A stretch of 64,000 nt of DNA from Erythrobacter litoralis HTCC2594 (GTDB taxonomy: Bacteria; Pseudomonadota; Alphaproteobacteria; Sphingomonadales; Sphingomonadaceae). Shown here in pieces: positions 14,821 to 52,917 of the stretch. The stretch is taken from NCBI RefSeq assembly GCF_000013005.1, contig NC_007722.1:2547501-2611500 (forward strand), written 5' to 3'. The notes below the pieces were generated by a model. That model was not told the DNA's origin. It worked only from the letters and a program-made list of their open reading frames with translations, and ran no database searches. Numbering within the stretch: the first letter of the stretch is position 1; every line of letters starts with the position of its first letter. The position numbers were made by a program, and so were the translations under genes.

Positions 14821-14910
14821 TTTGCGTTGCGAAAGCGCATCCGCGCTTTCGTCCTCGCTAGATGCGCAGCAAGCTGCGCCCGCTGCGGGCAGGCGGTCGC
14901 CCTTGCGGCC
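14821..14910 (+). repeat. Copy A of the ATCC-loop 3'-flanking structured repeat
   Basis: Begins right after the LytTR gene. Hairpin I: arms GAAAGCGC/GCGCTTTC around loop ATCC (14831-14850). Linker GTCCTCGCTAGA. Hairpin II: GCGCAGC-AA-GCTGCGC. Then GCTGCGGGC and hairpin III, GGC-GGTC-GCC, followed by CTTGCGG. The same order occurs at 44.4 kb with different but still paired stem bases. The remaining bases to 14954 are C/G-rich and hold no gene. Confidence 0.8.
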
Positions 14911-14954
14911 CCTCCCCCGGGGCCGTTTTCCGCAGCCGAGTTGAAAGGCAGCCC

Positions 14955-16322
14955 TTATCCGGGCCGAAACACCGTCTTCAAATTCATGAACTCGTGCAAG
15001 CCGAGGTGCGAAAGCTCGCGGCCGTGGCCCGATTTCTTGATCCCGCCAAAAGGCGCGACTGGGTGGGAGGAGAGGAACTGGTTGATCGCGGTCATGCCGG
15101 ATTCGATGTCGCGCACGAAGCGCTCTTCTTCGTCTGCGTCCTGCGTCCAGACCGACGAACCGAGGCCATAGGGGATCGCATTGGCGATATGGATGGCCTC
15201 GTCGATATCCTGGGCGCGGTAGAGCTGCGCGATCGGGCCGAAGATCTCGGCATTTGCGGTCTCGCTGTCAAGTTCCACCCCGGTGAGGACACCGGCAGTG
15301 ATGAAGGCACCCGCGCCGTCCTGAACCTCGCCGCCGAATTCGAGCGTGGCGCCTTCCTTTTTCGCGGTTTCGATCTGCTCCAGCACCGTCTCGAGCTGGT
15401 CGGTGCTTGATAGCGGGCCCATGTCGATACCATCGTCCATCGGATCGCCCGCCTGCACCGCCTGCATCTGCGCATAGAACGCATCGCGGAAACGCTCGTA
15501 GATATCGGCATGGACGATCATGCGCTTGCCGCAGATGCACGATTGGCCGGTATTCTGCACGCGCGCCAGAACCGCCTGCTCCACCGCCGCGTCGAGATCG
15601 GCCGACGGCATGACGATGAAGGGATCGGAGCCGCCGAGTTCGAGCACGACCTTCTTTAAATGCTTACCCGCCAGTTCAGCAACGGCGCTGCCCGCCTTCT
15701 CGCTTCCGGTCAGCGTGGCGGCCACCACCCGGTCATCGGCGATGATCGATTCGACGGCGTCCGACTTGATGGCGAGGTTCTGGAACAGGCCTTCGGGCGC
15801 GCCGGCCTCGCTCATCATCGCATCCATCATGGCGGCGCAGCCCTGAACGATGCTGGCATGCTTCAGCAGGCCGACATTTCCCGCCATGATCGCGGGCGCG
15901 AGGAAGCGGACGACCTGCCAATAGGGATAGTTCCACGGCATCACCGCCAGCACCGGGCCTTGCGCCAGCCAGCGCCCTTCTGCCGAACCATCGTCGCCCA
16001 GGTCCCAGTGCAGCGGTTCGAGCATTCCCGGTCCGGCCTCGGCCATATGCCGCATCAGGGCGATGCACTTGTCGACTTCGGCCCGCGCGCTCGACAGCGT
16101 CTTGCCCATTTCCAGCGTCGCTTGCCGCGCGAGCGGATCGCGGTGCGCTTCGTAGGCCTCCGCCAGGCTCAGCAGCATGGCGCTGCGCTCGTCGAGCGAC
16201 GACCGTCGCCACGCGGCATAGGCTTCGTCCGCCTTCGCCAGCTTCGCCTCGATTTCCTGCCCGGACAGTTCGGCATAGCTCTCCAGCGTTTCGCCGGTAG
16301 CAGGGTTGGTCGTCGTGATCAT
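14955..16322 (-). CDS. NAD(P)-dependent aldehyde dehydrogenase (succinate-semialdehyde type)
   Basis: 455 residues of the aldehyde dehydrogenase superfamily. VMPWNYPYWQVVRF and the LTGSEKAG loop form the cofactor site, LELGGSDPF carries the general base glutamate, and NTGQSCICGKR the catalytic cysteine. Closest to the GabD/Sad type that oxidises succinate semialdehyde to succinate; the exact substrate is not proved. The start MITTTNPATGE at 16322 is typical of the family; the much longer open frame upstream runs antisense through nadC and is rejected. Confidence 0.88.
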   Translation of the reverse strand: MITTTNPATGETLESYAELSGQEIEAKLAKADEAYAAWRRSSLDERSAMLLSLAEAYEAHRDPLARQATLEMGKTLSSARAEVDKCIALMRHMAEAGPGMLEPLHWDLGDDGSAEGRWLAQGPVLAVMPWNYPYWQVVRFLAPAIMAGNVGLLKHASIVQGCAAMMDAMMSEAGAPEGLFQNLAIKSDAVESIIADDRVVAATLTGSEKAGSAVAELAGKHLKKVVLELGGSDPFIVMPSADLDAAVEQAVLARVQNTGQSCICGKRMIVHADIYERFRDAFYAQMQAVQAGDPMDDGIDMGPLSSTDQLETVLEQIETAKKEGATLEFGGEVQDGAGAFITAGVLTGVELDSETANAEIFGPIAQLYRAQDIDEAIHIANAIPYGLGSSVWTQDADEEERFVRDIESGMTAINQFLSSHPVAPFGGIKKSGHGRELSHLGLHEFMNLKTVFRPG

Positions 16323-16428
16323 CGCAGGGCCTCGCAGTCGGAGTGGCGTTCGCTGTATCAATGGATCGCGCAAGGCCCCGTTCCGCTGCGCTTGAGAATG
16401 CAGGCAAAATCGCGCAGGACGTGCCGCC

Positions 16429-17292
16429 ATGAGCACATTCGACTTGCCCGGCTTCGACCTCGACCGTTTCGTGCGCGACACGCTGGCGGAGGACCTGGGC
16501 GAAGGCCTGCCTGGCGGCGGGCGCGACGTGACCAGCGAGAGCGTGATCCCCGCCGAAGCGCGCTTCGCCGGCGTGATGGACAGCCGCAACCCGATAGTGG
16601 TTGCGGGTCTCCCCGTCGCCGCAGCTTTCTTCCGCGCGCTCGATCCGGCGATGGCGATCGACATTCTGGTCGAGGAAGGCGCCGCAGTCGAACCCGGCGC
16701 GGACCTGATGCGGCTGGAGGGCAATGCCCGCGCCATGCTGACGGCGGAGCGCAGTGCGCTCAACACTGTCCAGCACCTCTCGGGCATCGCCACCATGGTG
16801 CGCGAGTATGTCGATGCGATGGACAATCCCGATTGCACGCTGCTCGACACGCGCAAGACCATTCCCGGCCTGCGGCATCTGGAGAAATACGCCACCCGCA
16901 TGGGCGGGGCATCGAACCACCGCATGGGGCTGTGGGATGCGGCGATGATCAAGGACAACCACGTGCTCGTGGCCGGAAACGTCGGCGAGGCGGTGCGCCG
17001 CGCGGTCGCGGCAGGGGTCGAGGAGATCATCTGCGAAGTCGACCGGCTCGACCAGATCGAACCTGCGCTCCGGGCAGGCGCGACACGGCTGTTGCTCGAC
17101 AATATGGGGCCCGACACTTTGCGTGAAGCCGTGAGCATCGTGGCAGGCCGCGTACCGACCGAAGCCAGCGGCGGGATCACTCTCGACACGATCAAGGCCA
17201 AGGCCGCGACGGGTGTCGATTACGTTTCCGTCGGCCGCCTGACCCAGAGCGCGCCCGCCGCCGATATCGGACTGGATTTCACACCGCTGTGA
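16429..17292 (+). CDS. nadC: Nicotinate-nucleotide pyrophosphorylase (carboxylating)
   Basis: 287 residues. Makes nicotinate mononucleotide from quinolinate and PRPP in NAD synthesis. Family features are visible: EDLGEGLPGGGRDVTSE near the N-terminus, NTVQHLSGIAT, LDTRKTIPGLR, KYATRMGGASNHRMGL, IKDNH and LDNMGPD, then ASGGITLDTIKAKAATGVDYVSVG. Length fits the family. Divergent from the aldehyde dehydrogenase gene. Its TGA overlaps a GTG that opens the RNase T2 frame. Confidence 0.96.
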   Translation: MSTFDLPGFDLDRFVRDTLAEDLGEGLPGGGRDVTSESVIPAEARFAGVMDSRNPIVVAGLPVAAAFFRALDPAMAIDILVEEGAAVEPGADLMRLEGNARAMLTAERSALNTVQHLSGIATMVREYVDAMDNPDCTLLDTRKTIPGLRHLEKYATRMGGASNHRMGLWDAAMIKDNHVLVAGNVGEAVRRAVAAGVEEIICEVDRLDQIEPALRAGATRLLLDNMGPDTLREAVSIVAGRVPTEASGGITLDTIKAKAATGVDYVSVGRLTQSAPAADIGLDFTPL

Positions 17293-18092
17293 GATTTGCC
17301 CTTCTTCATCATCGCGAGCGACGCAGTCGCGTGGCGATCCATGGAGCCGCCGCCGCTTTGCTCGCTTTGAGCCATGGATTGCCGCGGCGCTTAGCGCTCC
17401 TCGCAATGACGGGTTTGTTGATGGGAAGCGCCGCCCCGGGTCTCGCCCAATCCTACCAATGCCGCGTATCCGGCAATCTGCTGGTGCCCGAACAGCGGCA
17501 GGACGGCCCGACGCGGCAGCTGCCCGTCACCGGCTACACGCTGGCGCTCAGCTGGTCGCCCGAGTTCTGTCGCACCCGCCAGTCTTCGCGCCGCGATGCG
17601 ACGCAATGTTCTGGGCGGACCGGGCGCTTCGGCCTGATCGTCCACGGCCTGTGGCCCGACGGGCGTGACATCTGGCCGCAATATTGCGGCACCGCGCGCA
17701 CGGTTTCCGTACCCGAGGCGAAGCGCAACCTGTGCATGATGCCCTCGCCCCGCCTGATGGCACGGCAGTGGCAGAAACACGGCAGCTGCATGGCGCGCCG
17801 CCCGGAAACCTATTTCAAGGTCACGCGCATCCTCTGGAATAGCCTGCGCATCCCCGACTACGACCGTCTGTCGCGACAAGACAACCTCACCGCAGGCGAC
17901 ATCCGCTGCGCCTTCGCCAGCGCCAATGGCACGCACTGGCAGCCCGAAATGGTCGGCGTGAAGCTGAACGAGCGCGGCTGGCTGCAGGAATTGCGCCTGT
18001 GCTACGGCAAGAACTTTATGCCGGTGCGATGCAAACCCCGGCAATTGGGAGTGCGTGACAACATCGAAGCGAAGATTTGGCGAGGATTATGA
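17289..18092 (+). CDS. Secreted ribonuclease T2
   Basis: Up to 267 residues. Both catalytic segments of RNase T2 are present: FGLIVHGLWPDG (CAS I histidine) and RQWQKHGSC (CAS II histidine), with paired cysteines as in the family. T2 enzymes cut RNA through 2',3'-cyclic phosphates, usually in the periplasm or outside. The GTG at 17289 overlaps the nadC stop (GTGA). The region coding for residues about 7-40 is a palindromic repeat (17309-17409) interrupting the signal peptide; ATG at 17406 or 17418 would give a shorter leader ending GLAQS. The true start is uncertain. Confidence 0.85.
   Translation: MRFALLHHRERRSRVAIHGAAAALLALSHGLPRRLALLAMTGLLMGSAAPGLAQSYQCRVSGNLLVPEQRQDGPTRQLPVTGYTLALSWSPEFCRTRQSSRRDATQCSGRTGRFGLIVHGLWPDGRDIWPQYCGTARTVSVPEAKRNLCMMPSPRLMARQWQKHGSCMARRPETYFKVTRILWNSLRIPDYDRLSRQDNLTAGDIRCAFASANGTHWQPEMVGVKLNERGWLQELRLCYGKNFMPVRCKPRQLGVRDNIEAKIWRGL
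17309..17409. repeat. Palindromic repeat inserted in the RNase T2 leader
   Basis: About 101 bases with imperfect inverted ends (TCATCGCGAG at left, reverse complement of TCATTGCGAGGAGCG at right) and an inner pair TCCATGG/CCATGGA. Such elements are usually intergenic in proteobacteria. Here the reading frame stays open through the whole element. Confidence 0.65.
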
Positions 18093-18116
18093 GAGCATCT
18101 ATTGGAGGACTTCGAC

Positions 18117-18482
18117 ATGCGTTTATGGCTCACGGGATTGGCGGCCTTAATGTTGGCGGCCTGCTCTGGTTTAGCCAACGAGGCGGAATCAGAACAGATG
18201 GCAAGTCGCGACTTTGAGAGCCTCAGCGACTTCACAGATGCTCTCGAGCAAACATTCAAGAGCAAGCCTTTGGAATACTCGAGGGCAATTGCGTTGATAA
18301 AGGATGGCGCAGCAGGTCCTGACTGGCTTGCAACGTTCCATGGGCTGCCTGACAACAAATCAGCGTGCGAGGAGATTATTCAACCTTACAATGAAGACCC
18401 GGCGCTGTCTGTGGTGCCTGGTCGTTATAGATGTATAGAGATCGATTCAGGCTTTTCACTTGCCGCAACTGCGGACATGTGA
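18117..18482 (+). CDS. Small putative lipoprotein
   Basis: 121 residues starting MRLWLTGLAALMLAACSG, a lipoprotein signal with lipobox LMLAAC. The ATG at 18117 is chosen because GGAGG ends 8 bases upstream; an in-frame TTG at 18102 has no such support. The rest (SLSDFTDALEQTF, a cysteine pair in SACEE and RYRCIEI) matches no family I know. Base composition is clearly lower in G+C than its neighbours, hinting at recent gain. It is convergent with tadA. Confidence 0.7.
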   Translation: MRLWLTGLAALMLAACSGLANEAESEQMASRDFESLSDFTDALEQTFKSKPLEYSRAIALIKDGAAGPDWLATFHGLPDNKSACEEIIQPYNEDPALSVVPGRYRCIEIDSGFSLAATADM

Positions 18483-18483
18483 G

Positions 18484-18939
18484 TCAGCGCCGCTCCCTGA
18501 AAAACCCACGCAGCATGTCCGCCGCTTCGTCCTCGCCCATGCCTGAATATACCTCCGGAGCGTGCAGGCATTGTGAGTGGTCGAACACCTTGGCGCCGTG
18601 CTCCACAGCGCCGCCCTTGGGGTCGCTGGCCGCGTAATAGAGTCGCGCGATGCGGGCGTGGCTGATCGCGCCTGCGCACATTGCGCAGGGCTCCAGTGTC
18701 ACCCACAGGTCGCAGCCTTCCAGCCGTTCCTGCCCTAGCGCCTTGGCGGCGGCACGAATTGCGGCGATCTCGGCATGGGCGGTGGGATCATGGTCGGTGC
18801 GCGGCGAATTGTGGGCCGCAACGATTACTTTCTCGCCCTTCACCACCACCGCCCCAATCGGGACTTCGCCGGCATCGGCAGCCTTGCGTGCTTCCTCGAG
18901 CGCTAAGCGCATTGGGTCTGGTAATGGCCAGCGGGTCAT
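18484..18939 (-). CDS. tadA: tRNA adenosine(34) deaminase
   Basis: 151 residues. Converts adenosine 34 of tRNA-Arg(ACG) to inosine. The zinc deaminase signature is HAE (55-57) and PCAMC (84-88), with VPIGAVVV and NSPRTDHDPTAHAEI typical of TadA. Length and lack of extra domains match TadA rather than free nucleoside deaminases. Convergent with the lipoprotein gene, one base apart, and divergent from rpmB. Confidence 0.93.
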   Translation of the reverse strand: MTRWPLPDPMRLALEEARKAADAGEVPIGAVVVKGEKVIVAAHNSPRTDHDPTAHAEIAAIRAAAKALGQERLEGCDLWVTLEPCAMCAGAISHARIARLYYAASDPKGGAVEHGAKVFDHSQCLHAPEVYSGMGEDEAADMLRGFFRERR

Positions 18940-18983
18940 GCCAAAGCCGCTACGCGCGCTCGGCCCGGAAGGCCAGACTCGTG

Positions 18984-19012
18984 TTGACGATTCGCCCCTC
19001 CGCCGCTATGCG
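18984..19012 (+). promoter_or_regulatory. Sigma-70-type promoter of rpmB
   Basis: TTGACG (18984-18989), 17-base spacer, TATGCG (19007-19012), 47 bases before the rpmB ATG. It lies between the divergent tadA and rpmB genes and fits a housekeeping promoter. Confidence 0.6.
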
Positions 19013-19059
19013 CGCGCCTTTCCCGGCATTGACCGATATTTTTTGAGAAGAGACGAACC

Positions 19060-19359
19060 ATGTCGCGCATCTGCGAACTGACCGGCAAGGGCCGCCAGGT
19101 AGGCCACAATGTGAGCCACGCCAACAACAAGACCAAGCGCGTCTTCCTGCCCAATCTGCAGAACGTCACGCTGCTGAGCGAAAAGCTGGACCGCGGCTTC
19201 AAGTTCCGTGTGTCGACGCAGGGCCTGCGCTCGGTCGAGCACAATGGCGGGCTGGACAACTGGCTGCTCAAGACCAAGGACGACAAGCTGTCTTCGAATG
19301 CGCTCAAGGTGAAGCGCGAGCTCAAGAAGGCGATGAACGAGGCTGACGCTGCGGCGTAA
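19060..19359 (+). CDS. rpmB: 50S ribosomal protein L28
   Basis: 99 residues, beginning [29 protein letters not shown], the L28 signature, with [23 protein letters not shown]. The length matches the alphaproteobacterial form, which has a C-terminal extension. It is a single-gene unit with its own promoter upstream and a perfect hairpin downstream. It acts in the large ribosomal subunit. Confidence 0.98.
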
Positions 19360-19388
19360 GCGCTCGGCCGTCCGGCCTCACGAAATCT

Positions 19389-19424
19389 GCAAAAGGCGCG
19401 CGGGGCAACTTGCGCGCCTTTTGC
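19389..19424. terminator. Bidirectional terminator between rpmB and the phytase-like gene
   Basis: Perfect 13-bp inverted repeat (GCAAAAGGCGCGC at 19389-19401 and its complement at 19412-19424) with a 10-base loop. A/T stretches sit in the stem ends, so it can serve rpmB and the convergent gene ending at 19430. Confidence 0.85.
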
Positions 19425-19429
19425 TGTGA

Positions 19430-20410
19430 CTAGCGACCGGCGCGACCATCCCAGTAGAGCTGCGCGACGAGCGTGCGCTGGTAGGCGATATCGTTGTCGT
19501 CGGAAATCATCGTGATCGTGACCGGATAGCCGCCATCGGTCGGTTCTACCGCCAGCCCTTCGTAATTGTCGGTCGGGAAGGGGCGGGAGAAGACCGTCAG
19601 CAACTCGCCCGACCAGGTTTCGCCTTCGGCGATCTGCGCCGGATCGGCGACCAGCAGCCCGATCTCGAACCGCGGCGGCAGGCCGAAGACGATCCGCCGC
19701 AGCAGGAAGAGTACCCGCCCGTCGGGCAGGGCAGCGATATCGGTCGGGCGAAAGTCCTCGGGCGCGCTGAAGGCGAAGGACATGCCGGGATCACCTTCGG
19801 CAGGATCGCGCGCAAACAGGACCGCCGGCATGCGATCGTCGGTCCAGCGCGTGGTGCCCTCCCCGATCACGATAAAACGCCCGTCGTCGAAGCGCAGCAT
19901 GGCTTCGGGGCCGCTGTTGCTGCGCCAGTCCTGCATCGACGGCGGACGCACGCGGGTGGGCGAGCGCAGCCGCGCATCGCGCCGCTCGATCGCGTTGAGT
20001 CCTTCGTATGCCGCCCAGACCGTGCCGCTCTTCGGGTCAATCGCAAGCGCTTCGATGTCGGACGCACGTTTTTCGGCGAAGCGATCCTCGCCATTGAAGC
20101 GCGCCATCGGGCCAATGCCGAGGCGGTCGCCCTCTATCGTGAAGCGCAGGACATTGCCGCGATCGCTCGCGGTCAGGAATTCGCCCGGTGCCGTGGCCCG
20201 CAAGGCCGAATAGCTGCCGAACAGGTGATGGTTGCTGTCGAGCTCCCACGCATTGAGCGTGACGAACGGGCCGAGGCGCGGCGGCAGGTCGGTCAGCCGC
20301 GTGATCGCCACGCAGGAATCGTAATCGGGCGGCGGGACGGCGCTGCGCACCCAGGTCCCGGGCGCGAGGCCCAGCGCCACACAGGCGAGCAATATCAGCC
20401 GCCTTTTCAC
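19430..20410 (-). CDS. Secreted esterase-like phytase-domain protein
   Basis: 326 residues. The signal peptide (VKRRLILLACVALGLAPG) is followed by a beta-propeller-like domain of the esterase-like activity of phytase family: FGSYSALRA, FLTASDRGNVLRF, DIEALAIDPKSGTVWAAYEGLN, and NYEGLAVEP near the end. The GTG at 20410, 16 bases after the M23 peptidase stop, is chosen; the upstream frame lies inside that gene. Substrate unknown. Last gene of the xseA-DUF2093-M23 operon. Confidence 0.8.
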   Translation of the reverse strand: MKRRLILLACVALGLAPGTWVRSAVPPPDYDSCVAITRLTDLPPRLGPFVTLNAWELDSNHHLFGSYSALRATAPGEFLTASDRGNVLRFTIEGDRLGIGPMARFNGEDRFAEKRASDIEALAIDPKSGTVWAAYEGLNAIERRDARLRSPTRVRPPSMQDWRSNSGPEAMLRFDDGRFIVIGEGTTRWTDDRMPAVLFARDPAEGDPGMSFAFSAPEDFRPTDIAALPDGRVLFLLRRIVFGLPPRFEIGLLVADPAQIAEGETWSGELLTVFSRPFPTDNYEGLAVEPTDGGYPVTITMISDDNDIAYQRTLVAQLYWDGRAGR

Positions 20411-20426
20411 GGGTCCGCCCGCCGGG

Positions 20427-21362
20427 TCAGTCCATCGGGCCGGTAAAGAGCAGCGGATCGAGCCGCGCATCGCGCCACTTGAGGCTCCAGTGCAGATGCG
20501 GCCCCGTCGCCCGCCCGCTAGCGCCGATATTGCCGAGATACTGGCCTTGCTTGACCACTTGCCCTTCGCTCACCGCGATCTTGGAAAGATGCAGGAAAGC
20601 GCTGTTGAGGCCCTGTCCATGATCGATGATGAGAAGATAGCCCTCGAGCGAGAAGGGCCGCGCCGTCGCGAGCGTCACCACGCCGTCGGCGGGCGCGACG
20701 AAGGGCACGCCGTTGCCCGGTGCGATATCGATGCCCGAATGATAGCTGCCCGGTTCGCCGCGATAGATCCTCTGCGAGCCGAAGCGTCCGGAAATGCGGC
20801 CCCTGACCGGCCAGATGAAATCTTGCGCCCAACCCTGGCTCGGCGCGTCCATGCCCCGCGCGGCATTGATCTGGTCGAGTTCGGGCTTGCGCCGGGACCA
20901 CCAAGCCTCGCTCGCGCCGCCGCGTCTGCGGGCGATGTTCACGCGCTCGATATCCCAGTCCCGCCGTGCGATGGCGAGATCGGTTTCGATGGTGCTGCCA
21001 TTGCGCAGGGTCGCTACGAGCCGCGCGGTCGGCCCCGCGTCGCGATCGAAAGCGGCGAAAAAGCGCCCATCCTCGTCCAGCGTCAGTGCCTGCCCGCCCA
21101 GCCGCGCGCGGAACGTGCCCGCCGGAACCTGTCCGCGGATCCAGCCGCCTTGTTCCAGCTCGCCGCGATAGACGAAATCGCTCGGCCCGTCGGGTTTGGG
21201 CGGAAAGGCAGGAACTTCGACCGGTTGCGCCGCAACCGTTGCGGCGGCGGCGGCGGGCTGGACCGGTGCGGCCGCCGCATCTTCGCGCACGTTGGCCTGG
21301 CAACCGGGCGCTAGGGCGACGACAGCCGCCAACAGCGCGAGGCGCTTCGCAAACGGAGCCAT
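20427..21362 (-). CDS. M23 metallopeptidase lipoprotein (LytM/NlpD-like)
   Basis: 311 residues. The signal MAPFAKRLALLAAVVALAPGC has a lipobox-like end (LAPGC), then an alanine/proline-rich linker. The C-terminal LytM domain has YHSGIDIAPG (zinc histidine and aspartate), LLIIDHGQGLNSAFLHLS and GPHLHWSLKWR, so the catalytic histidines are present. It would cut peptidoglycan cross-bridges or act as an activator. Its ATG overlaps the TGA of the DUF2093 gene. Confidence 0.88.
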   Translation of the reverse strand: MAPFAKRLALLAAVVALAPGCQANVREDAAAAPVQPAAAAATVAAQPVEVPAFPPKPDGPSDFVYRGELEQGGWIRGQVPAGTFRARLGGQALTLDEDGRFFAAFDRDAGPTARLVATLRNGSTIETDLAIARRDWDIERVNIARRRGGASEAWWSRRKPELDQINAARGMDAPSQGWAQDFIWPVRGRISGRFGSQRIYRGEPGSYHSGIDIAPGNGVPFVAPADGVVTLATARPFSLEGYLLIIDHGQGLNSAFLHLSKIAVSEGQVVKQGQYLGNIGASGRATGPHLHWSLKWRDARLDPLLFTGPMD

Positions 21363-21565
21363 CACGCGTCTTGCGTCAGGCGCTGGGTCGCGAGTTCCGC
21401 CGAGGCATAGGCCTCTTGGTAGTGGACGCTCCAGTAGCGCAGGTCTTCCAGCGGAATTTCTTCGCCGCTCACAGCGCAATGGACGAAGCGCCCCGTGCGC
21501 AGGACGCGAAAGCCATTGGGGCCGTATTCGAGCCGCGCGGGCTCGTTTCGAGAGGACATCAACAT
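21362..21565 (-). CDS. DUF2093 protein
   Basis: 67 residues with the family core LRTGRFVHCAVSGEEIPLEDLRYWSVHYQEAYASAELA. The family is small, conserved in alphaproteobacteria and has no known function; the single cysteine and the LEDLRYWS block are its hallmarks. It overlaps the M23 gene start by one base (TGATG) and lies 24 bases after xseA, so all belong to one operon. Start may be ATG 21565 or 21559. Confidence 0.85.
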   Translation of the reverse strand: MLMSSRNEPARLEYGPNGFRVLRTGRFVHCAVSGEEIPLEDLRYWSVHYQEAYASAELATQRLTQDA

Positions 21566-21589
21566 GGGTATCTCTTTAGCAGCACAGGA

Positions 21590-44407: not shown

Positions 44408-44500
44408 TGTTTTGAACCCGCATCCGCGGGTTCGTCCTCGCTAGACGCGCGGCAAGCCGCGCCCGCTGCGGGCGGGCGGTCGCCCTTGCGGTCCGCTGGT
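44408..44500 (+). repeat. Copy B of the ATCC-loop 3'-flanking structured repeat
   Basis: Directly after the ligase stop. Hairpin I GAACCCGC/GCGGGTTC around ATCC (44414-44433), linker GTCCTCGCTAGA, hairpin II GCGCGGC-AA-GCCGCGC, GCTGCGGGC, hairpin III GGGC-GGTC-GCCC, then CTTGCGG. Compared with copy A, stems I and II differ by compensatory base-pair changes. Confidence 0.85.
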
Positions 44501-44550
44501 CGCGTACCGAACCAGCGCTTCTAATTAGGACGTGATGCTTGGTCGCGGCA

Positions 44551-44612
44551 GCCAAAGGCCGACCGGCCGTCGCGCCCACTGGCGCGGAAGCCTAAGGGGC
44601 CGGATGGCCCCG
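44551..44612 (-). repeat. Copy B' (inverted, diverged) of the structured repeat
   Basis: Read on the minus strand, just after the stop of the next gene: hairpin GGGGCC-ATCC-GGCCCC (44596-44611), then further down GGCC-GGTC-GGCC (44557-44568) and TTTGGC. Loops match copies A and B; linkers are diverged. Between B and B' is another short hairpin (GCTGGT/ACCAGC). Confidence 0.6.
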
Positions 44613-44634
44613 CCGGCGCTTGAGGCCAACCAAA

Positions 44635-45162
44635 CTACGCCGCTTCCGCCTCGATAAACTCCGGAAAGAAGCTCGGGGCCTGACTCGACCAGCCGGGCGC
44701 GGTGGCGGCGGCTTCGCTTAAGCTCTGCAGCAGGATCTTGCGGCGTTCGGGGCGGATGTCGGGCAGGGCGGCGGCGCCGACGAAGGCGCTGGGCAGCCAG
44801 GGGCGCACATCGGCGCCGAGCAGGCGTTCGTAGAGGAAACGGAAGGCAGAGAAGCCTTCGAGCTTGTCCTGGCCGAGATCGAAGGTCGCGACATGGATCA
44901 GCGTGCCGAGAAACAGGTCGAGCCGGTCGCCCGGGCCGACATGTGCGAGCTGTTCGCGCAGCGCCTTGAGATCCTGGTAAGCGACATACTGGCTGCGGAT
45001 GGCGATGTTCTCTTCGGCGTCGCGTGCCCACACCTTGAAGGCGTCGCAGCGGCCGAGGCCGATATCGAGGCTGCGGCGGATGTAGCGCTGTTCGCACGGC
45101 GTGAAATTCGCAAACTCGCGCATTTCCGCGATGCTGAGCGACTGGATGCCGGTGGTAGCCAT
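44635..45162 (-). CDS. Hypothetical protein
   Basis: 175 residues, helical, soluble, no signal peptide. Segments include FTPCEQRYIRRSLDIGLGRCDAFKVWARDAEENIAIRSQYVAYQDLKALREQL and IHVATFDLGQDKLEGFSAFRFLYERLLGADVRPWLPSAF. I do not recognise a family. A 7-bp hairpin covers its ribosome site and a CtrA-like motif lies about 40 bases upstream. Convergent with the acyl-CoA ligase gene. Confidence 0.7.
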   Translation of the reverse strand: MATTGIQSLSIAEMREFANFTPCEQRYIRRSLDIGLGRCDAFKVWARDAEENIAIRSQYVAYQDLKALREQLAHVGPGDRLDLFLGTLIHVATFDLGQDKLEGFSAFRFLYERLLGADVRPWLPSAFVGAAALPDIRPERRKILLQSLSEAAATAPGWSSQAPSFFPEFIEAEAA

Positions 45163-45167
45163 GATCG

Positions 45168-45473: not shown

Positions 45474-45559
45474 GATCGTGCTCCTGTCTTCGGGGGAGCC
45501 GCATCGCGCCTTGGGGAAGCCGGAAGCGGCAGGTCGTCGTATGATCGACCTGCTAATTC

Positions 45560-45584: not shown

Positions 45585-45619
45585 TGCTCTAGCGACAAGA
45601 TGGGTCTGCAATGCGACGA

Positions 45620-46618: not shown

Positions 46619-46635
46619 GGCGAGCGAGATAGCGT

Positions 46636-47019
46636 TCAATGCGCGCGACGCAAGTTGAGGATATGGCCGATCGAGACCAGCACGACGCCGATGATGGTGA
46701 GAACGGCCTCCTGCAGTCCGTGCGGCGCGGCGAGCGCTCCGCCCATGAAGGTGAGGCCGACCATGGCCACGACGAAAGGCGTGCGCTGGCGATGGCGCAA
46801 GGCGCCCCAGCCGATGGCCACGCCCGCGATCACCACCGCGAGGGCGAGACCCCAGCGGTGAATTTCCGGCGCGAGCAGCCACTGCCCGCCGAGGCCAAGT
46901 GTCGCGACGACGGCGATGCTGGCGAGGCAATGCACCAGGCACAGGCTCGACAGCACGATGCCCGCGCGGTCGAGGCGCGCGCGCAGCGATGGCTGGGACG
47001 AGGACGGCGGATGACTCAC
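46636..47019 (-). CDS. MerC-domain membrane protein
   Basis: 127 residues, four membrane segments. [23 protein letters not shown] with its CxxxC-like cysteine pair matches the MerC family, first known as mercuric-ion transporters; chromosomal copies often serve other metals or have unknown roles. The GTG at 47019 ([15 protein letters not shown]) is chosen since the upstream frame crosses the divergent promoter region shared with ctaA. No other mercury genes are present. Confidence 0.8.
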
Positions 47020-47113
47020 GGCGCTCCATCTATGTGATGATGTATCTTTTCGCAAGCTCTGTTGCGCGCAAACCGCCTTGAAACCTGCACCGCGCGCGAC
47101 CATTGGAGAGCGC

Positions 47114-48181
47114 ATGGCGACTTTGTCCCAAGTTCCCCCGGTCTCGCGGAAAGCCCGCGCCGCGCCGATGGCGCTGGCCCGTTGGCTGTGGGTCGTTGCC
47201 GGCCTGGTCGTGACGATCGTCGCAATAGGCGGGATCACCCGGCTGACGGAAAGCGGCCTTTCGATCACGCATTGGAGCGTGGTGTCCGGCATCCTCCCGC
47301 CGCTGTCCGAAAGCGCCTGGCAGGCCGAGTTCGACCTTTATCGCCAGACCGGAGAATATCGCCTCGAGAGCGGGCCGGCCGGAATGGACCTGGCCGCTTT
47401 CAAGTTCATTTATTTCTGGGAATGGTTTCACCGCATCCTGGGGCGGGTGATCGGCCTCGCTTTCCTGCTGCCGATGATGTGGTTCTGGATCAGGGGCATG
47501 ATCCCGGCGGGCTACAGGGGGCGGCTGCTCGCCCTCTTCGCGCTGATCTGCGGGCAGGGTGCGCTCGGCTGGTACATGGTCGCCTCAGGTGTCGGGACCG
47601 ACCTGACCGATGTCAGCCATTTCCGGCTATCGGCACATTTGTTGACTGCGCTTTTCCTGCTTGCGGGGCTGGTCTGGACCGCGCTCGACTTGCGGCGACT
47701 GGCGCGCGTGCCCGATGCGCGGCCTGCGCGCTTCACCGGCGTCGCGTGGATGGCTTCGATCATCCTCTTCATCCAGATCCTGCTCGGCGCATGGGTCGCC
47801 GGGCTCAATGCCGGGCATGCGTCTTACAGCTGGCCGATGATGAATGGCGGGCTCCTGCCGCAGCCCGATCTCACCAGGGGATGGCTGTGGGCACTGACGC
47901 ACGATCCCTTCCTGCTGCATTTCCTCCACCGCTGGTGGGCGTGGGTCGCTGTGATTGCGCTCGTCGTCCTGGCGCGCAAGGTCCGCCCGTTCGACCGCCG
48001 TGCGTCGATCGCGGTGCATTCCGCCTTCGGAACCATGGTCGTGCTCGGCATCGCGACGGTGCTGAGCGAAGTCTCGCTATGGATCGCGGTCGCGCACCAG
48101 CTTACCGGCGCGCTGCTGGTGATCTCGACCGCTTGGGCGGCGCATGCCATCGGCACGGCGCGCAAGACCGAGGCCGCATGA
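47114..48181 (+). CDS. ctaA: Heme A synthase (COX15/CtaA)
   Basis: 355 residues, eight membrane segments. Oxidises heme O to heme A for cytochrome oxidase. IGGITRLTESGLSITHW, FWEWFHRILGRVIGLAF, HLLTALFLL and HFLHRWWAWVAV contain the conserved histidines, with AHQLTGALL near the end. The ATG at 47114 (MATLSQVPP) has GGAG upstream. Overlaps cutA by 4 bases. Confidence 0.94.
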   Translation: MATLSQVPPVSRKARAAPMALARWLWVVAGLVVTIVAIGGITRLTESGLSITHWSVVSGILPPLSESAWQAEFDLYRQTGEYRLESGPAGMDLAAFKFIYFWEWFHRILGRVIGLAFLLPMMWFWIRGMIPAGYRGRLLALFALICGQGALGWYMVASGVGTDLTDVSHFRLSAHLLTALFLLAGLVWTALDLRRLARVPDARPARFTGVAWMASIILFIQILLGAWVAGLNAGHASYSWPMMNGGLLPQPDLTRGWLWALTHDPFLLHFLHRWWAWVAVIALVVLARKVRPFDRRASIAVHSAFGTMVVLGIATVLSEVSLWIAVAHQLTGALLVISTAWAAHAIGTARKTEAA

Positions 48182-48495
48182 GCGCGCTGATCTACGCGCC
48201 CTTCCCCGACCGGGAAACCGCCCGGCAGGTCGCCACGCAATTGCTCGACGAAAAGCTGATCGCCTGCGCCAACCTGCTGGGCGCGATGGAATCGCTCTAC
48301 GAGTGGAACGGCGAGCGCGGGAGCGGCGAGGAAATCGCCGTGCTGATGAAGACGGAAGCCAGCGTGCTGGACGCTGCGGTCGCCCGTCTCGAAAGCCTGC
48401 ATCCTTACGATACGCCCGCCGTGCTCGGGTGGAAATGCGATGCGGCAGGCGCGGCGACCACGGCCTGGCTTGGTGCGCTCAGGCCCGCCCAATAG
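48178..48495 (+). CDS. cutA: CutA divalent-cation tolerance protein
   Basis: 105 residues with the CutA pattern: ALIYAPFPDRETARQVATQLLDEKLIACANLL, YEWNGERGSGEEIAVLMKTEASVLDAAVARLESLHPYDTPAVLGW. It forms ferredoxin-like trimers; linked to copper tolerance in E. coli, general role uncertain. Its ATG overlaps the ctaA TGA, so they form an operon, fitting a copper-related context for heme A synthesis. Confidence 0.93.
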   Translation: MSALIYAPFPDRETARQVATQLLDEKLIACANLLGAMESLYEWNGERGSGEEIAVLMKTEASVLDAAVARLESLHPYDTPAVLGWKCDAAGAATTAWLGALRPAQ

Positions 48496-48537
48496 CACAC
48501 GGTATTATTTTACCTCTCCGCAAACCCGCATGAATGC

Positions 48538-48566
48538 TTGACCTTCAGCGCGTTTGCGACCATTTG
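48538..48566 (+). promoter_or_regulatory. Possible promoter of rplM-rpsI
   Basis: TTGACC (48538-48543), 17-base spacer, CATTTG (48561-48566). The -10 is weak; the location, about 95 bases before rplM after the end of cutA, is suitable. Confidence 0.35.
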
Positions 48567-48658
48567 CCGCGCCCTGAGCGATGCCTCGCAAGAGGATTCG
48601 CGCACCCACGCCGCGGCTCCGGCCCCGGCAGCACGAACACTAAGGAACGAGATCAGCC

Positions 48659-49138
48659 ATGAAGGCTCTTACGAAGACCACCCGGTCGATCAAACCGGCC
48701 GAGGTCGAAAAGAAGTGGCACCTGATTGACGCCGAAGGCCTGGTCGTCGGTCGCCTCGCAGCGATCGTCGCCAGCATCCTGCGCGGCAAGCACAAGCCCA
48801 GCTTCACCCCGCATGTCGATTGCGGCGACCATGTCATCATCCTCAATGCCGACAAGGTGAAGTTCACCGGCAACAAGATGACCGACAAGGTCTATTACAA
48901 GCACACCGGCCACCCCGGCGGCATCAAGGAAACGACCCCGGCCAAGGTGCTGGAAGGCCGCTTCCCCGAGCGTGTGATCGAAAAGGCCATCCAGCGCATG
49001 ATTCCGCGCGGTCCGCTGGGCCGCGACCAGATGCGCGCCCTGCACATCTATGCCGGCACCGAGCATCCGCATGACGGCCAGAAGCCCGAAGTGCTCGACG
49101 TCGCTTCCATGAATCGCAAGAACAAGGTCTCCGCGTAA
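48659..49138 (+). CDS. rplM: 50S ribosomal protein L13
   Basis: 159 residues: [48 protein letters not shown], then [43 protein letters not shown]. Normal L13 of the large subunit. Its TAA overlaps the rpsI start by one base (TAATG), the usual rplM-rpsI operon. Confidence 0.98.
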
Positions 49139-49848
49139 TGGCTGACAAGAAGAAGACCGAAGAGCAGGCGGCCGACACCCCGGCAACCGAGACTCCGGAA
49201 ACCGAAGCTCCCAAGGCGGAAGACGCCAAGGCCGGCGCCAAGGAAGAGGCGAAGGCTGGCGAAAAGCCTGCCGCAGAAGCTCCGGCTGAAAAAGCCGAGG
49301 CAAAGTCCGAGGAAAAGGCGGACGAGAAAGCCGAAGAGAAGAAGACCGACAGCGTCTCCGATCTCGCCGATCTCGGCAATATCGCCGGTGACGCGCCCGA
49401 GGGCGATGCCGCCGCGATCGCTGCCAGCACCGCGCCGCTGCGCGAGCAGGAGCTCGACAAGGAAGGCCGCGCCTACGCCACGGGTCGTCGTAAAGACGCC
49501 GTCGCCCGCGTCTGGATCAAACCGGGCAAGGGCAAGGTCACCGTTAACGGCAAGGAGCAGGAAGTCTATTTCGCGCGCCCGACGTTGCGTCTGATCATCG
49601 ACCAGCCCTTCACCATCACCGAGCGCCAGGGCCAGTACGACGTCGTCGCCACCGTCCGCGGCGGCGGTCTCTCGGGGCAGGCAGGGGCGGTGAAGCACGG
49701 CATCAGCCAGGCATTGAGCAAGTACGAGCCGGAACTGCGCAGCACGATCAAGGCTGCCGGCTTCCTGACCCGCGACAGCCGCGTGGTCGAGCGCAAGAAG
49801 TACGGTCGCGCCAAGGCACGCCGCAGCTTCCAGTTCTCGAAACGCTAA
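49138..49848 (+). CDS. rpsI: 30S ribosomal protein S9 with a long acidic/lysine-rich extension
   Basis: 236 residues. The S9 core starts near residue 111 ([29 protein letters not shown]) and ends in the standard basic tail [17 protein letters not shown], which reaches the P site. Residues 1-100 are an extension made almost wholly of A, E, K, D, P and T, roughly doubling the protein. The shared start overlap with rplM makes ATG 49138 secure. A terminator follows. Confidence 0.97.
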
Positions 49849-49872
49849 GTCTTCGGGCTGCCGAACATCACG

Positions 49873-49901
49873 AAGGGCGGTCCTGTCGGGCCGCCCTTTT
49901 T
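49873..49901 (+). terminator. Terminator of rplM-rpsI
   Basis: AAGGGCGG/CCGCCCTT stem with a 10-base loop followed by TTT, 25 bases after the rpsI stop. Confidence 0.88.
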
Positions 49902-49923
49902 GATTCAAGCCGGGTCGGGAAAC

Positions 49924-50778
49924 CTAGTGAACCGGCGGATCGGTGCGCGGGACCTGCCGTACGGGAGCAACCGGTTCTCCCGGTCGGCGTGGCGGGGTCG
50001 CATCTTCGGGCACGTCCTCGATCATCATGTCGCGGCTCTCGATATCGTCGAGATTGCGCACCCGCACGGTCAGTTCGCTGCCATTCCAGCGCAATTCGTT
50101 GAAGCTGGGCGGGGTCGAGCGGGTCCGCTTCGACAAGGTGCCCGCGCCTATCATGCGCACCGGCCCGCGATCGGTCTGCTCGACGATGTCGAAGGCATCA
50201 TGGACATGGCCGCTGATGACCGCCGCCACCGGGCGCGTCGCCAGTTCGCGCAGCGCCTTCGTGCCGTTGCGTGTCAGCGCCGTGCCTTCGGTGCCGACTT
50301 CGCGCAGCGGATGGTGTACCGCTACCAGCGCCTGCGTGCCTGGCGGAAGCGCGTCCACCGCGGCGAGGCACTTGTCGAGCGCCGTCTGCGTCACCCAGCC
50401 CTTCGACCAGTTCAGTCGCGGCTGCGCCCGGACCGCGGTTTTGAGCGGAACGATCGCAATGTCCGGCAGGTCGATCTCCTTCTCCACCAAGTCCTGCATC
50501 CCGCGAAACCGGCGATAAGGGTCGAAGAACCGCTCGATAGGGTTGAAATAGGGCATGTCGTGATTGCCCACCTCGACCGTGACGGGCACGCCAAGACCCC
50601 TGATCCACTTTGTGGCGGCGTCGAATTCACGGTGGCGGGCGCGCATGGTCAGGTCGCCGGTAATGGCGACGGCATCGGGGCGAAGCTCGGCGATCTCCTG
50701 CTGCACCCAATCGAGCGCCTGGTTGTCCTCAAGCCCGAAGTGGATATCGGACAGGTGGAATATGAGTGCGTCGGTCAT
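49924..50778 (-). CDS. Calcineurin-like metallophosphoesterase
   Basis: 284 residues. The metal-binding blocks are in order: FHLSDIHFG, AITGDLTMRARHREFD, VEVGNHDMP, ALVAVHHPL, and SGHVHDAFD. Family members hydrolyse phosphoesters such as cyclic nucleotides; substrate unknown. The C-terminal tail is rich in proline and arginine. Its start overlaps the stop of the lipid kinase gene by 4 bases. Confidence 0.9.
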   Translation of the reverse strand: MTDALIFHLSDIHFGLEDNQALDWVQQEIAELRPDAVAITGDLTMRARHREFDAATKWIRGLGVPVTVEVGNHDMPYFNPIERFFDPYRRFRGMQDLVEKEIDLPDIAIVPLKTAVRAQPRLNWSKGWVTQTALDKCLAAVDALPPGTQALVAVHHPLREVGTEGTALTRNGTKALRELATRPVAAVISGHVHDAFDIVEQTDRGPVRMIGAGTLSKRTRSTPPSFNELRWNGSELTVRVRNLDDIESRDMMIEDVPEDATPPRRPGEPVAPVRQVPRTDPPVH

Positions 50779-51623
50779 GCGCGCGGTCCAAGCAGCGTCA
50801 CCCCCAGCGGCGCAAGCGAAAATCGCTCTTCCGGCTGGCCTTCGAACCGCTCCCCGTCGATCATCAGCTCGATGCCGTCATCCCGGGTGGACTGAAAGAG
50901 CACCTCTCTTGCAGTGCCAAGATCGTCATGCGGTCCGTCGCGGAAATTGCGTCCGATAATGGCCGCACCTTGCCGCACGAATTCGTCGAGACCTTCGATG
51001 CGATAGGCGCGCACCTGCATACCGGCTTCGGTAAGCGAGAGCAGGATACCGGCATAGCCCGACGCGCGCCCCAGTTCCGGTTCGGTGATGCGGACAAGCG
51101 GCCCGTTGCGGCTGTTGTCGATAGCATCGATCGATTCGGCCGCAGCCGCGAGGATATCGCCGTCGCGCATGTCCTCGCGCACTTCGGCCCAGCGCGCGCC
51201 CGGCCCCGCCAGCACTTCGGCCAGCGCGATCCAGTCGCGCCCTTCGATACATTCGGGCATGCGCGGCACCAATGCCCCGCTGGCCAGCTTCGCCATGATG
51301 GCGGCGCTGTCGCATTCGGACCACCAGCGTTTGCACAGCAGGTTGGAGGTGCCGCCCGGCAACGGCAGGATCGATCCATCCCAGCCCCGCAATTGTCCGA
51401 CAATCGAGTTCATCGTCCCGTCGCCGCCGTGGACGGCCACCAGGTCGAAGCCCTCGGCAGTTACGTAGTCCCGCAGGTCCAGGGTTGCTTCACTGCAGTC
51501 GAGGACCTGGCTCGAAGCGATCCCGGCCGCTGCAAAGCCGTCGAGAAGATCGCGTTCCACGCCCTCCGAATGGCTGCCGCTCCGGCGATTGATAACCAGC
51601 AAAGCGTTTGAAAATCCGGTCAT
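50775..51623 (-). CDS. Diacylglycerol kinase-family lipid kinase
   Basis: 282 residues. INRRSGSHSEG, LVAVHGGDGTMNSIVGQL (nucleotide site GGDGT) and ILPLPGGTSNLLCK are the DAGK catalytic motifs; a beta-sandwich C-terminal domain ends the protein. The enzyme would phosphorylate diacylglycerol or a similar lipid at the membrane. Operon with the phosphoesterase. An acidic pair in the N-terminal part is normal for the family. Confidence 0.88.
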   Translation of the reverse strand: MTGFSNALLVINRRSGSHSEGVERDLLDGFAAAGIASSQVLDCSEATLDLRDYVTAEGFDLVAVHGGDGTMNSIVGQLRGWDGSILPLPGGTSNLLCKRWWSECDSAAIMAKLASGALVPRMPECIEGRDWIALAEVLAGPGARWAEVREDMRDGDILAAAAESIDAIDNSRNGPLVRITEPELGRASGYAGILLSLTEAGMQVRAYRIEGLDEFVRQGAAIIGRNFRDGPHDDLGTAREVLFQSTRDDGIELMIDGERFEGQPEERFSLAPLGVTLLGPRA

Positions 51624-51670
51624 TACCGGCGTTTACTCTCGCGGCGGGGCGGTGTCGCCACCTTAATTCG

Positions 51671-51973
51671 TCACTTGCGGCGCGAGAGGATCATCCACGC
51701 CGCGATCCCGTTGCAGGCGGAATAGAAGCCATAGGCCCAACCGGACATCGGAAATCCCATCCGGGCAAGCGACAGCGCGGCGGCGAGGATGAGGAATTCC
51801 AGCGCCATCGCGATTCGCCTGCCACCTTTGGTCGCAAGCCACGGCACGTCCTGCAGCACCGGGTGGCCGCTCCGCATGACGGCGCTGTGCATCGCGAAAT
51901 TGGCGATCCCGAGCATGAAGACGATGACGATCAACATGCCTGTAGTCTGCCGGAATTGTTCGTCGATTGCCAA
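51671..51973 (-). CDS. Small membrane protein
   Basis: 100 residues with three hydrophobic segments (about 12-30, 55-72 and 76-94), ending in a basic SRRK. FAMHSAVMRSGHPVLQDVPWLATKGGRRIAMALEFLILAAALS is the most distinct part. No family recognised. It precedes the lipid kinase on the same strand by 47 bases. Confidence 0.7.
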   Translation of the reverse strand: MAIDEQFRQTTGMLIVIVFMLGIANFAMHSAVMRSGHPVLQDVPWLATKGGRRIAMALEFLILAAALSLARMGFPMSGWAYGFYSACNGIAAWMILSRRK

Positions 51974-52141
51974 TGGCCTTTGGTCCGGGATTTCGCGCTT
52001 TTGGTCCCGGGCCCAGCCCGTTTGTCGTTTCGATTACGCATGTAGTCGGATTGGCCGTGCAGCGCGTTGCCAGCGCGCGTATTTCAAACCTCGCGAACGG
52101 CATCCCCCCTCGAACAGGCCGTCGCAGACGGAGGAATACAC

Positions 52142-52450
52142 ATGAAGACCCCCATCCTTGCCCTTGCAGCGACCGCTTCCCTGTTGACCGGTGCCCCCGC
52201 GCTGGCCGGCAGTGCCAACGCTGACGCCATGGTCGTGACCTATGCCGATCTCGACCTCAACACCACCGCCGGCCAGAAGACGCTCGAATCGCGCATCGAT
52301 GCCGCGGCGAAGAAATACTGCTCGGTCGGCGTGCACACGACCGGCACCCGCATCACCGCCTCGAAGGCGAAAGGCTGCATTCGCGAAGTGAAACGCCTCG
52401 CCAAGCGGCAATTCGCCCAGGTGATGGACGAAACCCGCTTGGGTGGCTGA
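52142..52450 (+). CDS. UrcA-family secreted protein
   Basis: 102 residues with a signal peptide (MKTPILALAATASLLTGAPALA). The mature part has the UrcA pattern VTYADLDLNTTAGQKTLESRIDAAAKKYC with a second cysteine in KGCIREVKRLAKRQF; the two cysteines may form a disulfide. The family is common in sphingomonads and related groups; function unknown. GGAGGA lies just upstream of ATG 52142 and a strong terminator follows. Confidence 0.88.
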   Translation: MKTPILALAATASLLTGAPALAGSANADAMVVTYADLDLNTTAGQKTLESRIDAAAKKYCSVGVHTTGTRITASKAKGCIREVKRLAKRQFAQVMDETRLGG

Positions 52451-52501
52451 CGCGACCCCAGCTACCCGGAGGCTGCAACCCTAACAGGTTCAGTCACGGA
52501 G

Positions 52502-52538
52502 CCCCGAGCCGGACGCAGTCCCCCGGCTCGGGGTTTTT
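52502..52538 (+). terminator. Terminator of the urcA-like gene
   Basis: Perfect 11-bp stem CCCCGAGCCGG/CCGGCTCGGGG with a 10-base loop followed by TTTTT. Confidence 0.92.
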
Positions 52539-52599
52539 ATGTGGGGCGGGCGGATCGCTTTAGACGCTGGGCTAGGTGGCGGGGTTTCGAGTTTTTGTT

Positions 52600-52685
52600 T
52601 TTCGCACGCCCATCCGGGCGCGCGGTTTCCTCGCTCAAGGGGTCCTGCGGACCTAATCGCTGCGGGCGCGCAGTCGCGCTTGCGG
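52600..52685 (+). repeat. Copy C of the structured repeat
   Basis: Hairpin I GCACGCCC/GGGCGCGC around ATCC (52604-52623; 7 of 8 pairs), linker TTTCCTCGCT, hairpin II GGTCC-TGC-GGACC, GCTGCGGGC, hairpin III GCGC-AGTC-GCGC, CTTGCGG. It lies after the terminator of the urcA-like gene. The 136 bases up to copy D hold C/G-rich, partly palindromic sequence without a gene. Confidence 0.7.
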
Positions 52686-52822
52686 TCGGCTGTGCAGGTG
52701 GCGCTTCGCGCCGTCTGCGCCTTCGGCTTCGACTCCGCCGACCGTGCTCCGCCACACAGTAGTTAGCCTGTTCGAGCGAAAGTCCTTGGTTTGGTCGCGG
52801 AGCACCGGGCCGGCGGAGGCCA

Positions 52823-52917
52823 GGCAAGGGCGACCGCCCGCCCCGCAGGTGCCCGACCGAAGGGAGGACCAGCACCGAGGACGCACCCACGGATGCGGGT
52901 GCGAAAAGCAAAAAACA
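52823..52917 (-). repeat. Copy D of the structured repeat (inverted)
   Basis: On the minus strand, just after the LytTR gene stop: hairpin I GCACCCGC/GTGGGTGC around ATCC (52883-52902), linker GTCCTCGG, then CCTGCGGGGC, hairpin III GGGC-GGTC-GCCC and CTTGCC. Faces copy C, so the two form a large inverted repeat. Confidence 0.78.

What the first reader, a model, noticed from the sequence alone, without database searches (positions are those of the whole stretch)
14821..52917. A family of 3'-flanking elements with covarying hairpins and fixed loops
Copies A (14821), B (44408), C (52600) and D (52823, minus) share a hairpin with loop ATCC, a (G)TCCTCGCT-type linker, GCTGCGGG and a hairpin with loop GGTC or AGTC ending CTTGCG; a weaker copy B' (44551, minus) keeps both loops. 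Stem I differs in each copy yet stays paired: GAAAGCGC/GCGCTTTC, GAACCCGC/GCGGGTTC, GCACCCGC/GTGGGTGC, GGGGCC/GGCCCC. Stems II (A versus B) and III (B versus C) also change on both sides. Compensatory change means the structure is conserved, as RNA or as cruciform DNA. I know no named element like it.
Basis: seen in the sequence. Interest (0 to 1): 0.8.

Follow-up and report, generated by a model that had tools for sequence, protein, structure and literature searches.

The report
Hairpin-array DNA repeats between genes
These are about thirty scattered copies of a roughly 100-base stretch of DNA that folds into four hairpins; the hairpin stems keep changing letters while staying paired, and the pattern of change suggests that DNA, rather than RNA, is what does the folding.

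Summary
Copies A-D belong to a repeat with 33 arms at E<1e-4 in this 3.05-Mb genome. A family model matches 12 of 24 sampled genomes of the own family and 0 of 16 from other families of the order. An arm is a T-rich lead, hairpin I (loop NTCC), TCCTCGC, hairpin II, GCTGCGGGC, hairpin III, TTGCGG and usually hairpin IV, about 100 bp. Adjacent arms mostly face inward (43 +-, 1 -+, 6 tandem). Stem I covariation beats every shuffle.

The RNA/3'-UTR reading is weakened: single arms between co-directional genes lie both ways (43 same, 30 opposite); G.T pairs are no commoner than A.C; C and D lie behind terminator-like sites.

Best reading: a REP/BIME-like element acting as folded DNA, inserted in units by an unknown enzyme (no Y1 transposase in the 10 carriers tested), then kept in place. 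B' is 85-92% identical across three genera where neighbouring genes are 74-80%. It matches no Rfam family (window at gathering scores) and lacks defining marks of GTAG and CGTC REPs.

The parts
14821..14925 (+). Copy A, single arm with hairpins I-IV; hairpin I 14831-14850 (loop ATCC 14839-14842); just after a LytTR response regulator gene
   Evidence: (model match 14827-14912); hairpin IV read from sequence
44410..44495 (+). Copy B, arm with hairpins I-III; hairpin I 44414-44433; just after an AMP-binding enzyme gene
44541..44637 (-). Copy B', diverged arm of the third class facing B; stem I GGGGCC/GGCCCC 44596-44611; kept at the same site in G015 and G016
   Evidence: not matched by models R1 and R2
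52600..52755 (+). Copy C, left arm of an inverted pair; hairpin I 52604-52623; hairpins I-III to 52689, then hairpin IV with extra sequence in it
   Evidence: hairpin IV extent read from sequence
52786..52909 (-). Copy D, right arm of the pair; hairpin I 52883-52902
   Evidence: model match 52825-52906; outer part read from sequence
52521..52538 (+). Terminator-like site before copy C
   Evidence: stem 52521-52533 then T run
52909..52934 (-). Terminator-like site directly before copy D
   Evidence: stem 52934-52919 then T run

Best explanation
A REP/BIME-like interspersed DNA element found mainly in Erythrobacteraceae. Its unit is an arm of about 100 bp made of up to four hairpins in a row. 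Shown: the anatomy, the copy number, the lineage limits, the inward-facing pairing, the both-ways orientation, the avoidance of divergent gaps, stem covariation that is almost purely Watson-Crick, and retention at orthologous sites. Inferred: single units insert into gaps near gene ends, with a short target duplication, by an enzyme that is not a Y1/RAYT transposase. The arms fold as single-stranded or extruded DNA, for example during replication. A protein reads the fixed loops and linkers plus the hairpin shape, so stem letters are free to change as long as they pair, helped by hairpin-templated copying (template switching). In the host the arm sits as a tolerated or mildly useful spacer at the ends of transcription units.
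For: Copies: 33 arms at E<1e-4 in the own genome, matches in 12 of 24 family genomes. Covariation; compensatory differences between orthologous copies. DNA rather than RNA: in 110 distinct stems I 697 Watson-Crick pairs, 13 G.T, 29 A.C, 31 other; in 101 stems IV 624, 11, 16, 28, whereas tRNAs of the same loci have 29 G.U in 500 drawn pairs; single arms in co-directional gaps 43 same, 30 opposite; both orientations in one gap. REP-like placing: divergent gaps 4 of 147 against 140 of 533 background gaps, convergent 54 of 147 against 91 of 533; adjacent arms 43 +-, 4 --, 2 ++, 1 -+. Insertion: full and empty sites L040 vs L065 and L038/L065 vs L040, L137, L135, L042, with ATGAT on both sides in L038 and GATGG on both sides in L040. 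No Y1 transposase in the 10 carriers tested. Constraint: B' 85-92% identical among three genera, flanking genes 74-80%.
Against: The target duplication rests on two sites, one of them altered in one of its two species (L065), and a third comparison (L038 tolQ-tolR-like site) shows none. No enzyme was found; only Y1 transposase and reverse transcriptase families were tested. Orientation is not exactly even (43:30, p 0.16). A.C exceeds G.T (29 vs 13 in stem I; 54 vs 7 single changes between orthologous-site arms), mostly A on the 5' side in the outer half of the stem, which could mean wobble on the bottom strand. The high conservation of B' would also fit an RNA or protein-binding role. Two pairs in the own genome lie in gaps called divergent.
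Confidence: 0.58

Rival explanations
1. A structured RNA element in 3' untranslated regions (terminator, mRNA stabiliser or sRNA source), as the title of the finding suggests. The stems are kept by selection on the RNA.
For: In the window every copy follows a gene end; copies avoid divergent gaps; B' is more conserved than its coding neighbours; REPs are known to stabilise mRNA in either orientation (recalled).
Against: 30 of 73 single arms in co-directional gaps are in the opposite orientation; G.T not favoured over A.C; C and D stand behind terminator-like sites of their own genes; no Rfam match; folding energies near those of shuffled sequence.
Confidence: 0.14
2. A decayed or neutral repeat whose stems are kept paired only by template switching at imperfect hairpins during replication, without selection on the structure.
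For: Almost pure Watson-Crick pairing. Between arms at the same site, 348 of 875 stem I cells differ on both sides and stay paired, against 104 with a single change (many of these arms are of different classes, so not strictly homologous). Template switching is known to make compensatory multi-base changes in one event (PMC8794818, abstract and opening read).
Against: Fixed loops and linkers: TCCTCG in 181 of 197 arms; B' is kept better than coding neighbours; unrelated stems around the same loop would need repeated replacement.
Confidence: 0.2
3. An Erythrobacteraceae branch of an already described alphaproteobacterial repeat: CGTC-tagged REPs, or the long Caulobacter intergenic repeats (CIR).
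For: Shared with CGTC REPs: stems mostly of 8-9 bp (125 of 198), loops of 4, inverted dimers, no associated transposase, alphaproteobacteria (PMC3733652, passages and part of Results read). The core module also occurs in Glycocaulis and Woodsholea.
Against: CGTC directly beside hairpin I in 3 of 198 arms (overlapping the stem end in 43), GTAG in 3 of 198, A-T outermost pair in 27 of 198. Units are about 100 bp with four hairpins, not 20-40 bp. Palindromes that look like classic CGTC REPs (recognised by eye) lie separately near our element in L061 and L163. CIR could not be compared: the paper is not held.
Confidence: 0.1

Closest known systems
REP/BIME elements and REPINs (GTAG REPs with RAYT)
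   Same: Interspersed intergenic palindromes, singles and inverted dimers, absent from promoter gaps, stems that covary, loops fixed
   Different: Arms of about 100 bp with up to four different hairpins; no GTAG tag; no Y1/RAYT transposase in the 10 carriers tested; almost no G.T pairs, while GT pairing is reported as frequent in GTAG REPs (PMC3733652)
CGTC-tagged REPs of alphaproteobacteria
   Same: Stems of 8-9 bp, loop of 4, inverted dimers, no dedicated transposase
   Different: No CGTC tag beside the hairpin, no A-T start of the stem, four hairpins per unit; CGTC-REP-like palindromes occur separately in L061 and L163
Caulobacter intergenic repeats (CIR, Chen and Shapiro 2003; recalled, paper not held)
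   Same: Long (over 100 bp) intergenic repeats with inverted-repeat organisation in alphaproteobacteria
   Different: Not compared; CIR are defined by association with CcrM methylation sites, which I did not test
Integron attC sites (recalled)
   Same: A DNA site recognised by its single-stranded hairpin shape, with stem letters free to vary
   Different: No integrase or cassette context looked for or seen; several hairpins in a row; similarity of working principle only, not membership

Membership tests
GTAG REP | Unpaired GTAG at one end of the hairpin | tested here: not met
   GTAG within 6 bases of hairpin I in 3 of 198 arms; other hairpins not tested
GTAG REP / REPIN | Mobilising RAYT (Y1 transposase, PF01797) in the genome | tested here: not met
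   0 in the own genome and 0 in the 10 carriers among the 24 genomes; carriers G015 and G016 were not in that call
CGTC REP | Unpaired CGTC (or TGTC, CCTC) at one end of the hairpin | tested here: not met
   CGTC directly beside hairpin I in 3 of 198 arms, overlapping the stem end in 43; CCTC does follow hairpin I after a few bases, within the linker
CGTC REP | A-T pairs at the first and second stem positions | tested here: not met
   Outermost pair A-T or T-A in 27 of 198 arms; second pair not counted
CGTC REP | Stem 8-9 bp, loop 4-5, inverted dimers | tested here: met
   Stem I 8-9 bp in 125 of 198; 4-base loop by construction of the search; 43 of 50 adjacent arms +-; head and tail naming not tested
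CGTC REP | Unit of 20-40 bp, one hairpin | tested here: not met
   Arms of about 100 bp with up to four hairpins
Caulobacter CIR | Sequence match to CIR1-4 and a CcrM site in the repeat | not tested
   Paper not held
Rfam RNA families | Match to a covariance model | tested here: not met
   window, gathering; 52590-52930, E<=1
Retrotransposed (SINE-like) repeat | Reverse transcriptase available in the genome | tested here: not met
   PF00078: 0 in the own genome; 3 of 10 carriers tested have a match

The most novel reading that the evidence does not exclude
A mobile DNA unit read by shape: a multi-hairpin single-stranded DNA substrate for an unknown enzyme other than a Y1 transposase, which recognises fixed loops and linkers while ignoring stem sequence. 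It inserts with a target duplication, pairs up face to face, and is afterwards kept by the host at gene ends across genera. That would be a RAYT-free answer to how transposase-less palindromic repeats of alphaproteobacteria spread.
Probability: 0.2. Interest if true: 0.78.

Novelty: new variant of a known kind. Interest (0 to 1): 0.55.

Why it matters
Compensatory change is normally taken as strong evidence of a functional RNA. Here a family with very strong covariation shows no G.U preference and no clear strand preference, so it is a good case for separating RNA selection from DNA-level causes (shape-reading proteins or template switching). It also gives a countable, site-conserved system for asking how palindromic repeats without a known transposase spread and why hosts keep them.

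Tried and rejected
RNA terminator / 3'-UTR element: weakened by orientation, the G.T versus A.C count and the terminator-like sites already in place.

REP with RAYT: no Y1 transposase in the carriers tested. Retro-element: no reverse transcriptase in the own genome. Other transposase families were not tested.

Whole-arm alignment by MAFFT put the 8-bp and 9-bp classes of stem I one column out of register, so no model was built from it. Model R2 was built from a model-fitted alignment instead, and the main covariation test was done without an alignment. In that call my first pattern, which allowed mixed loops, caught wrong loops in own arms and gave a lower figure (0.513 vs 0.370).

Hidden partner arms near single arms were sought and mostly not found: 6 of 127 examined had a candidate, against 3 of 127 in each of two controls.

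The C-D pair folded as one DNA strand gives a long imperfect hairpin (z -3.6), but the covariation is within arms, so this was not used as evidence.

A.C excess: at first it suggested that the bottom strand folds; most of it is A on the 5' side in the outer half of stem I, so only the lack of a G.T excess is claimed.

Counts of same and opposite orientation between orthologous-site arms (174 and 133) mix the two arms of inverted pairs and were not used.

Two parses of tRNA output failed; its brackets may leave out A.C pairs, so only its G.U share is used.
Full report
WHAT IS THERE. Copies A (14827-14912), B (44410-44495), C (52600-52689) and D (52825-52906, minus) are as described. A covariance model (R1) of their hairpins I and III, searched over the own genome (3,052,398 bases, one contig), gives 51 matches at E<=10, of which 33 have E<1e-4 (150 of 6548 first-look candidates were scored). 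Nine pairs of matches span 225-321 bp, first on the plus and then on the minus strand (one partner only at E 0.006), and a tenth has a weak partner (E 2.6); I see none the other way round in that list. C and D are one of these pairs. B' is not reached by the models.

ANATOMY. Reading all arms in one direction: a T-rich lead such as TTTTTGTTTT (at least 6 T in the 12 bases before stem I in 136 of 197 arms, against 5 of 197 for a control stretch); hairpin I, mostly of 8-9 bp, with loop NTCC; a linker with TCCTCG (181 of 197); hairpin II in several flavours (AGACGTGCGGCAAGCCGCACCC, CAAGGGGCCTGCGGCCCAAT, CATGCGACCTGAAGGTCGCGT, GGTGC...GCACC); GCTGCGGGC; hairpin III (GGGC/GCCC, GCGC/GCGC or GGCC/GGCC around GGTC or AGTC); TTGCGG; hairpin IV (for example GGTCGGCTGGTCGCCGACC, GGCCCCTCCGCCGGGGCC, GCGCTACGCGC); and often GTGCTCCGC and a spacer (GCTCCGC after hairpin IV in 43 of 197). 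Flavours are combined like modules. The foreign loci were fetched by a pattern over hairpin III, so conservation of that part is partly by selection; the own-genome set is not.

COVARIATION. For ATCC-loop stems, pairing is 0.887 in 21 distinct own arms against 0.541 (sd 0.043) when 3' arms are dealt anew, and 0.776 against 0.485 (sd 0.030) in 48 foreign ones. Stem III alone is weaker: 0.841 vs 0.696 in 11 own stems (equalled by the best of 1000 shuffles) and 0.766 vs 0.636 in 16 foreign stems (best shuffle 0.797; same call). On a model-fitted alignment of 104 distinct rows, 94.7% of cells pair, the covariation score is 0.493 against 0.110 shuffled and at most 0.056 slid, and all nine stem I pairs change on both sides; in stem III two of four pairs do. 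Between L089 and L106 (84% identical over 7.9 kb) the left linker up to hairpin III differs at one base, while stems I and III of both arms and stem IV of the right arm differ on both sides.

WHICH NUCLEIC ACID. If RNA pairing were selected, G.T should be tolerated and A.C not. In 110 distinct stems I there are 697 Watson-Crick pairs, 13 G.T, 29 A.C and 31 other; in 101 stems IV 624, 11, 16 and 28; in 16 stems III 52, 3, 5 and 4. The A.C surplus is mostly A on the 5' side in the outer half of stem I; it is also seen between arms at the same site in different genomes (54 A.C, 7 G.T, 43 other single changes, 348 double changes, 422 unchanged and 1 other in 875 cells). That surplus would be G.T on the bottom strand, so a bottom-strand role is not excluded. 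tRNAs in the same loci have 29 G.U in 500 drawn pairs. Single arms between co-directional genes are 43 with and 30 against transcription (p 0.16). In the gap that I read as hisB-hisH (names from the translated ends, not from a call) the arm is in plus orientation in L194, L202 and L047, in minus orientation in L135, L086, L042, L068, L038 and L065, and missing in L137. C and D stand behind terminator-like sites at 52521-52533 (+) and 52934-52919 (-); three such sites were found in that stretch against 0.7 expected (sd 0.9). None was found near A; B was not scanned.

WHERE. Of 189 elements (42 pairs, 147 single arms) 147 could be classified; 23 were at locus ends or ambiguous and 19 were far from, or overlapped, a called gene. 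Gaps: 89 co-directional, 54 convergent, 4 divergent, against 302, 91 and 140 of 533 background gaps of at least 60 bp. Gene calls come from a simple codon model trained on the window, and orthologous sites are counted more than once, so the p-values are too strong.

PERSISTENCE AND TURNOVER. Several own-genome sites are shared with same-genus relatives whose flanks are roughly 73-90% identical. The C-D gap holds a full pair in G016, a compact one in G001 and remnants in G003; I saw none in the stretch printed for the other 13 genomes (by eye). B' is kept in G015 and G016 at 91.8% and 87.6% identity to the own copy (84.7% to each other), while the neighbouring genes are 74-80% identical, and the G016 copy differs by paired changes in stems II and III. 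Arm B was not seen at that site in the 17 relatives printed (by eye). Full and empty forms of one site: L040 versus L065 (flanks 91-93%) and L038/L065 versus L040, L137, L135, L042. In the latter the arm entered the end of a gene (HIT-like by eye), and ATGAT stands on both sides in L038; the right copy is altered in L065. L040's site (tolQ-tolR-like by eye) has GATGG on both sides; L038's arm at that site shows no clear repeat.

DISTRIBUTION. R2 (built from 139 foreign arms) matches 12 of 24 genomes of the own family and 0 of 16 from other families of the order. In a class-wide sample it matches 5 of 289 genomes: 4 of the 5 family members listed and one other at E 3.7e-4 (stricter filters). 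With the core pattern at up to one mismatch, 4 of 385 match, all among the 5 family members. The core, without an obvious hairpin I, also occurs in Glycocaulis profundi and Woodsholea maritima. Some genera (L061, L163, L173, G006) have tandem arrays and shorter units.

ENZYME. PF01797 is absent from the own genome and from the nine other carriers tested; PF00078 is absent from the own genome. Other transposase families were not tested.

WHAT IS KNOWN. Papers: PMC3733652 (passages and one part of Results), PMC3116915 (abstract and outline), PMC8794818 (abstract, opening and outline), PMC1273637 (two passages). Chen and Shapiro 2003 was not held and is cited from recall. No description of this repeat was found by searches of the held library; four of these returned nothing and one (57) two papers that I did not open, so this is weak evidence of novelty.

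VERDICT. A real, sizeable family of hairpin-array repeats, undescribed as far as searched; mechanistically REP/BIME-like but outside the tagged REP families as tested; covariation best explained at the DNA level.

Noticed in passing
window 14023-14820 and 52926-53900: Copies A and D each follow a LytTR response regulator gene; in relatives the two genes appear as a strong and a weak (33-40% identity) match to the same query.
   Followed up: no
stem I, outer half, many copies: A recurrent A.C mismatch with A on the 5' side (25 AC against 4 CA and 13 G.T in 105 distinct stems; 33 unpaired of 101 at one column pair). It might mark strand or orientation, like the stem irregularities of other folded DNA sites.
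   Followed up: partly
L046, L123, L134, L140: The core module without hairpin I lies in Glycocaulis profundi (once in L046, twice in tandem in L123) and Woodsholea maritima.
   Followed up: no
L061, L163: Palindromes of the form CGTCATGCCGGACTTGATCCGGCAT-like sequence, which look like classic CGTC REPs (recognised from recall), lie near tandem arrays of our element.
   Followed up: no
own genome, places: At E<1e-4 the element sites look unevenly spread: about 7 in the first half of the contig and about 18 in the second (counted by eye, pairs as one site).
   Followed up: no
L137 and L065, gap read as hisB-hisH: Both carry extra sequence that looks like a small ORF in this gap; L065 has it plus an arm, L137 without an arm.
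   Followed up: no
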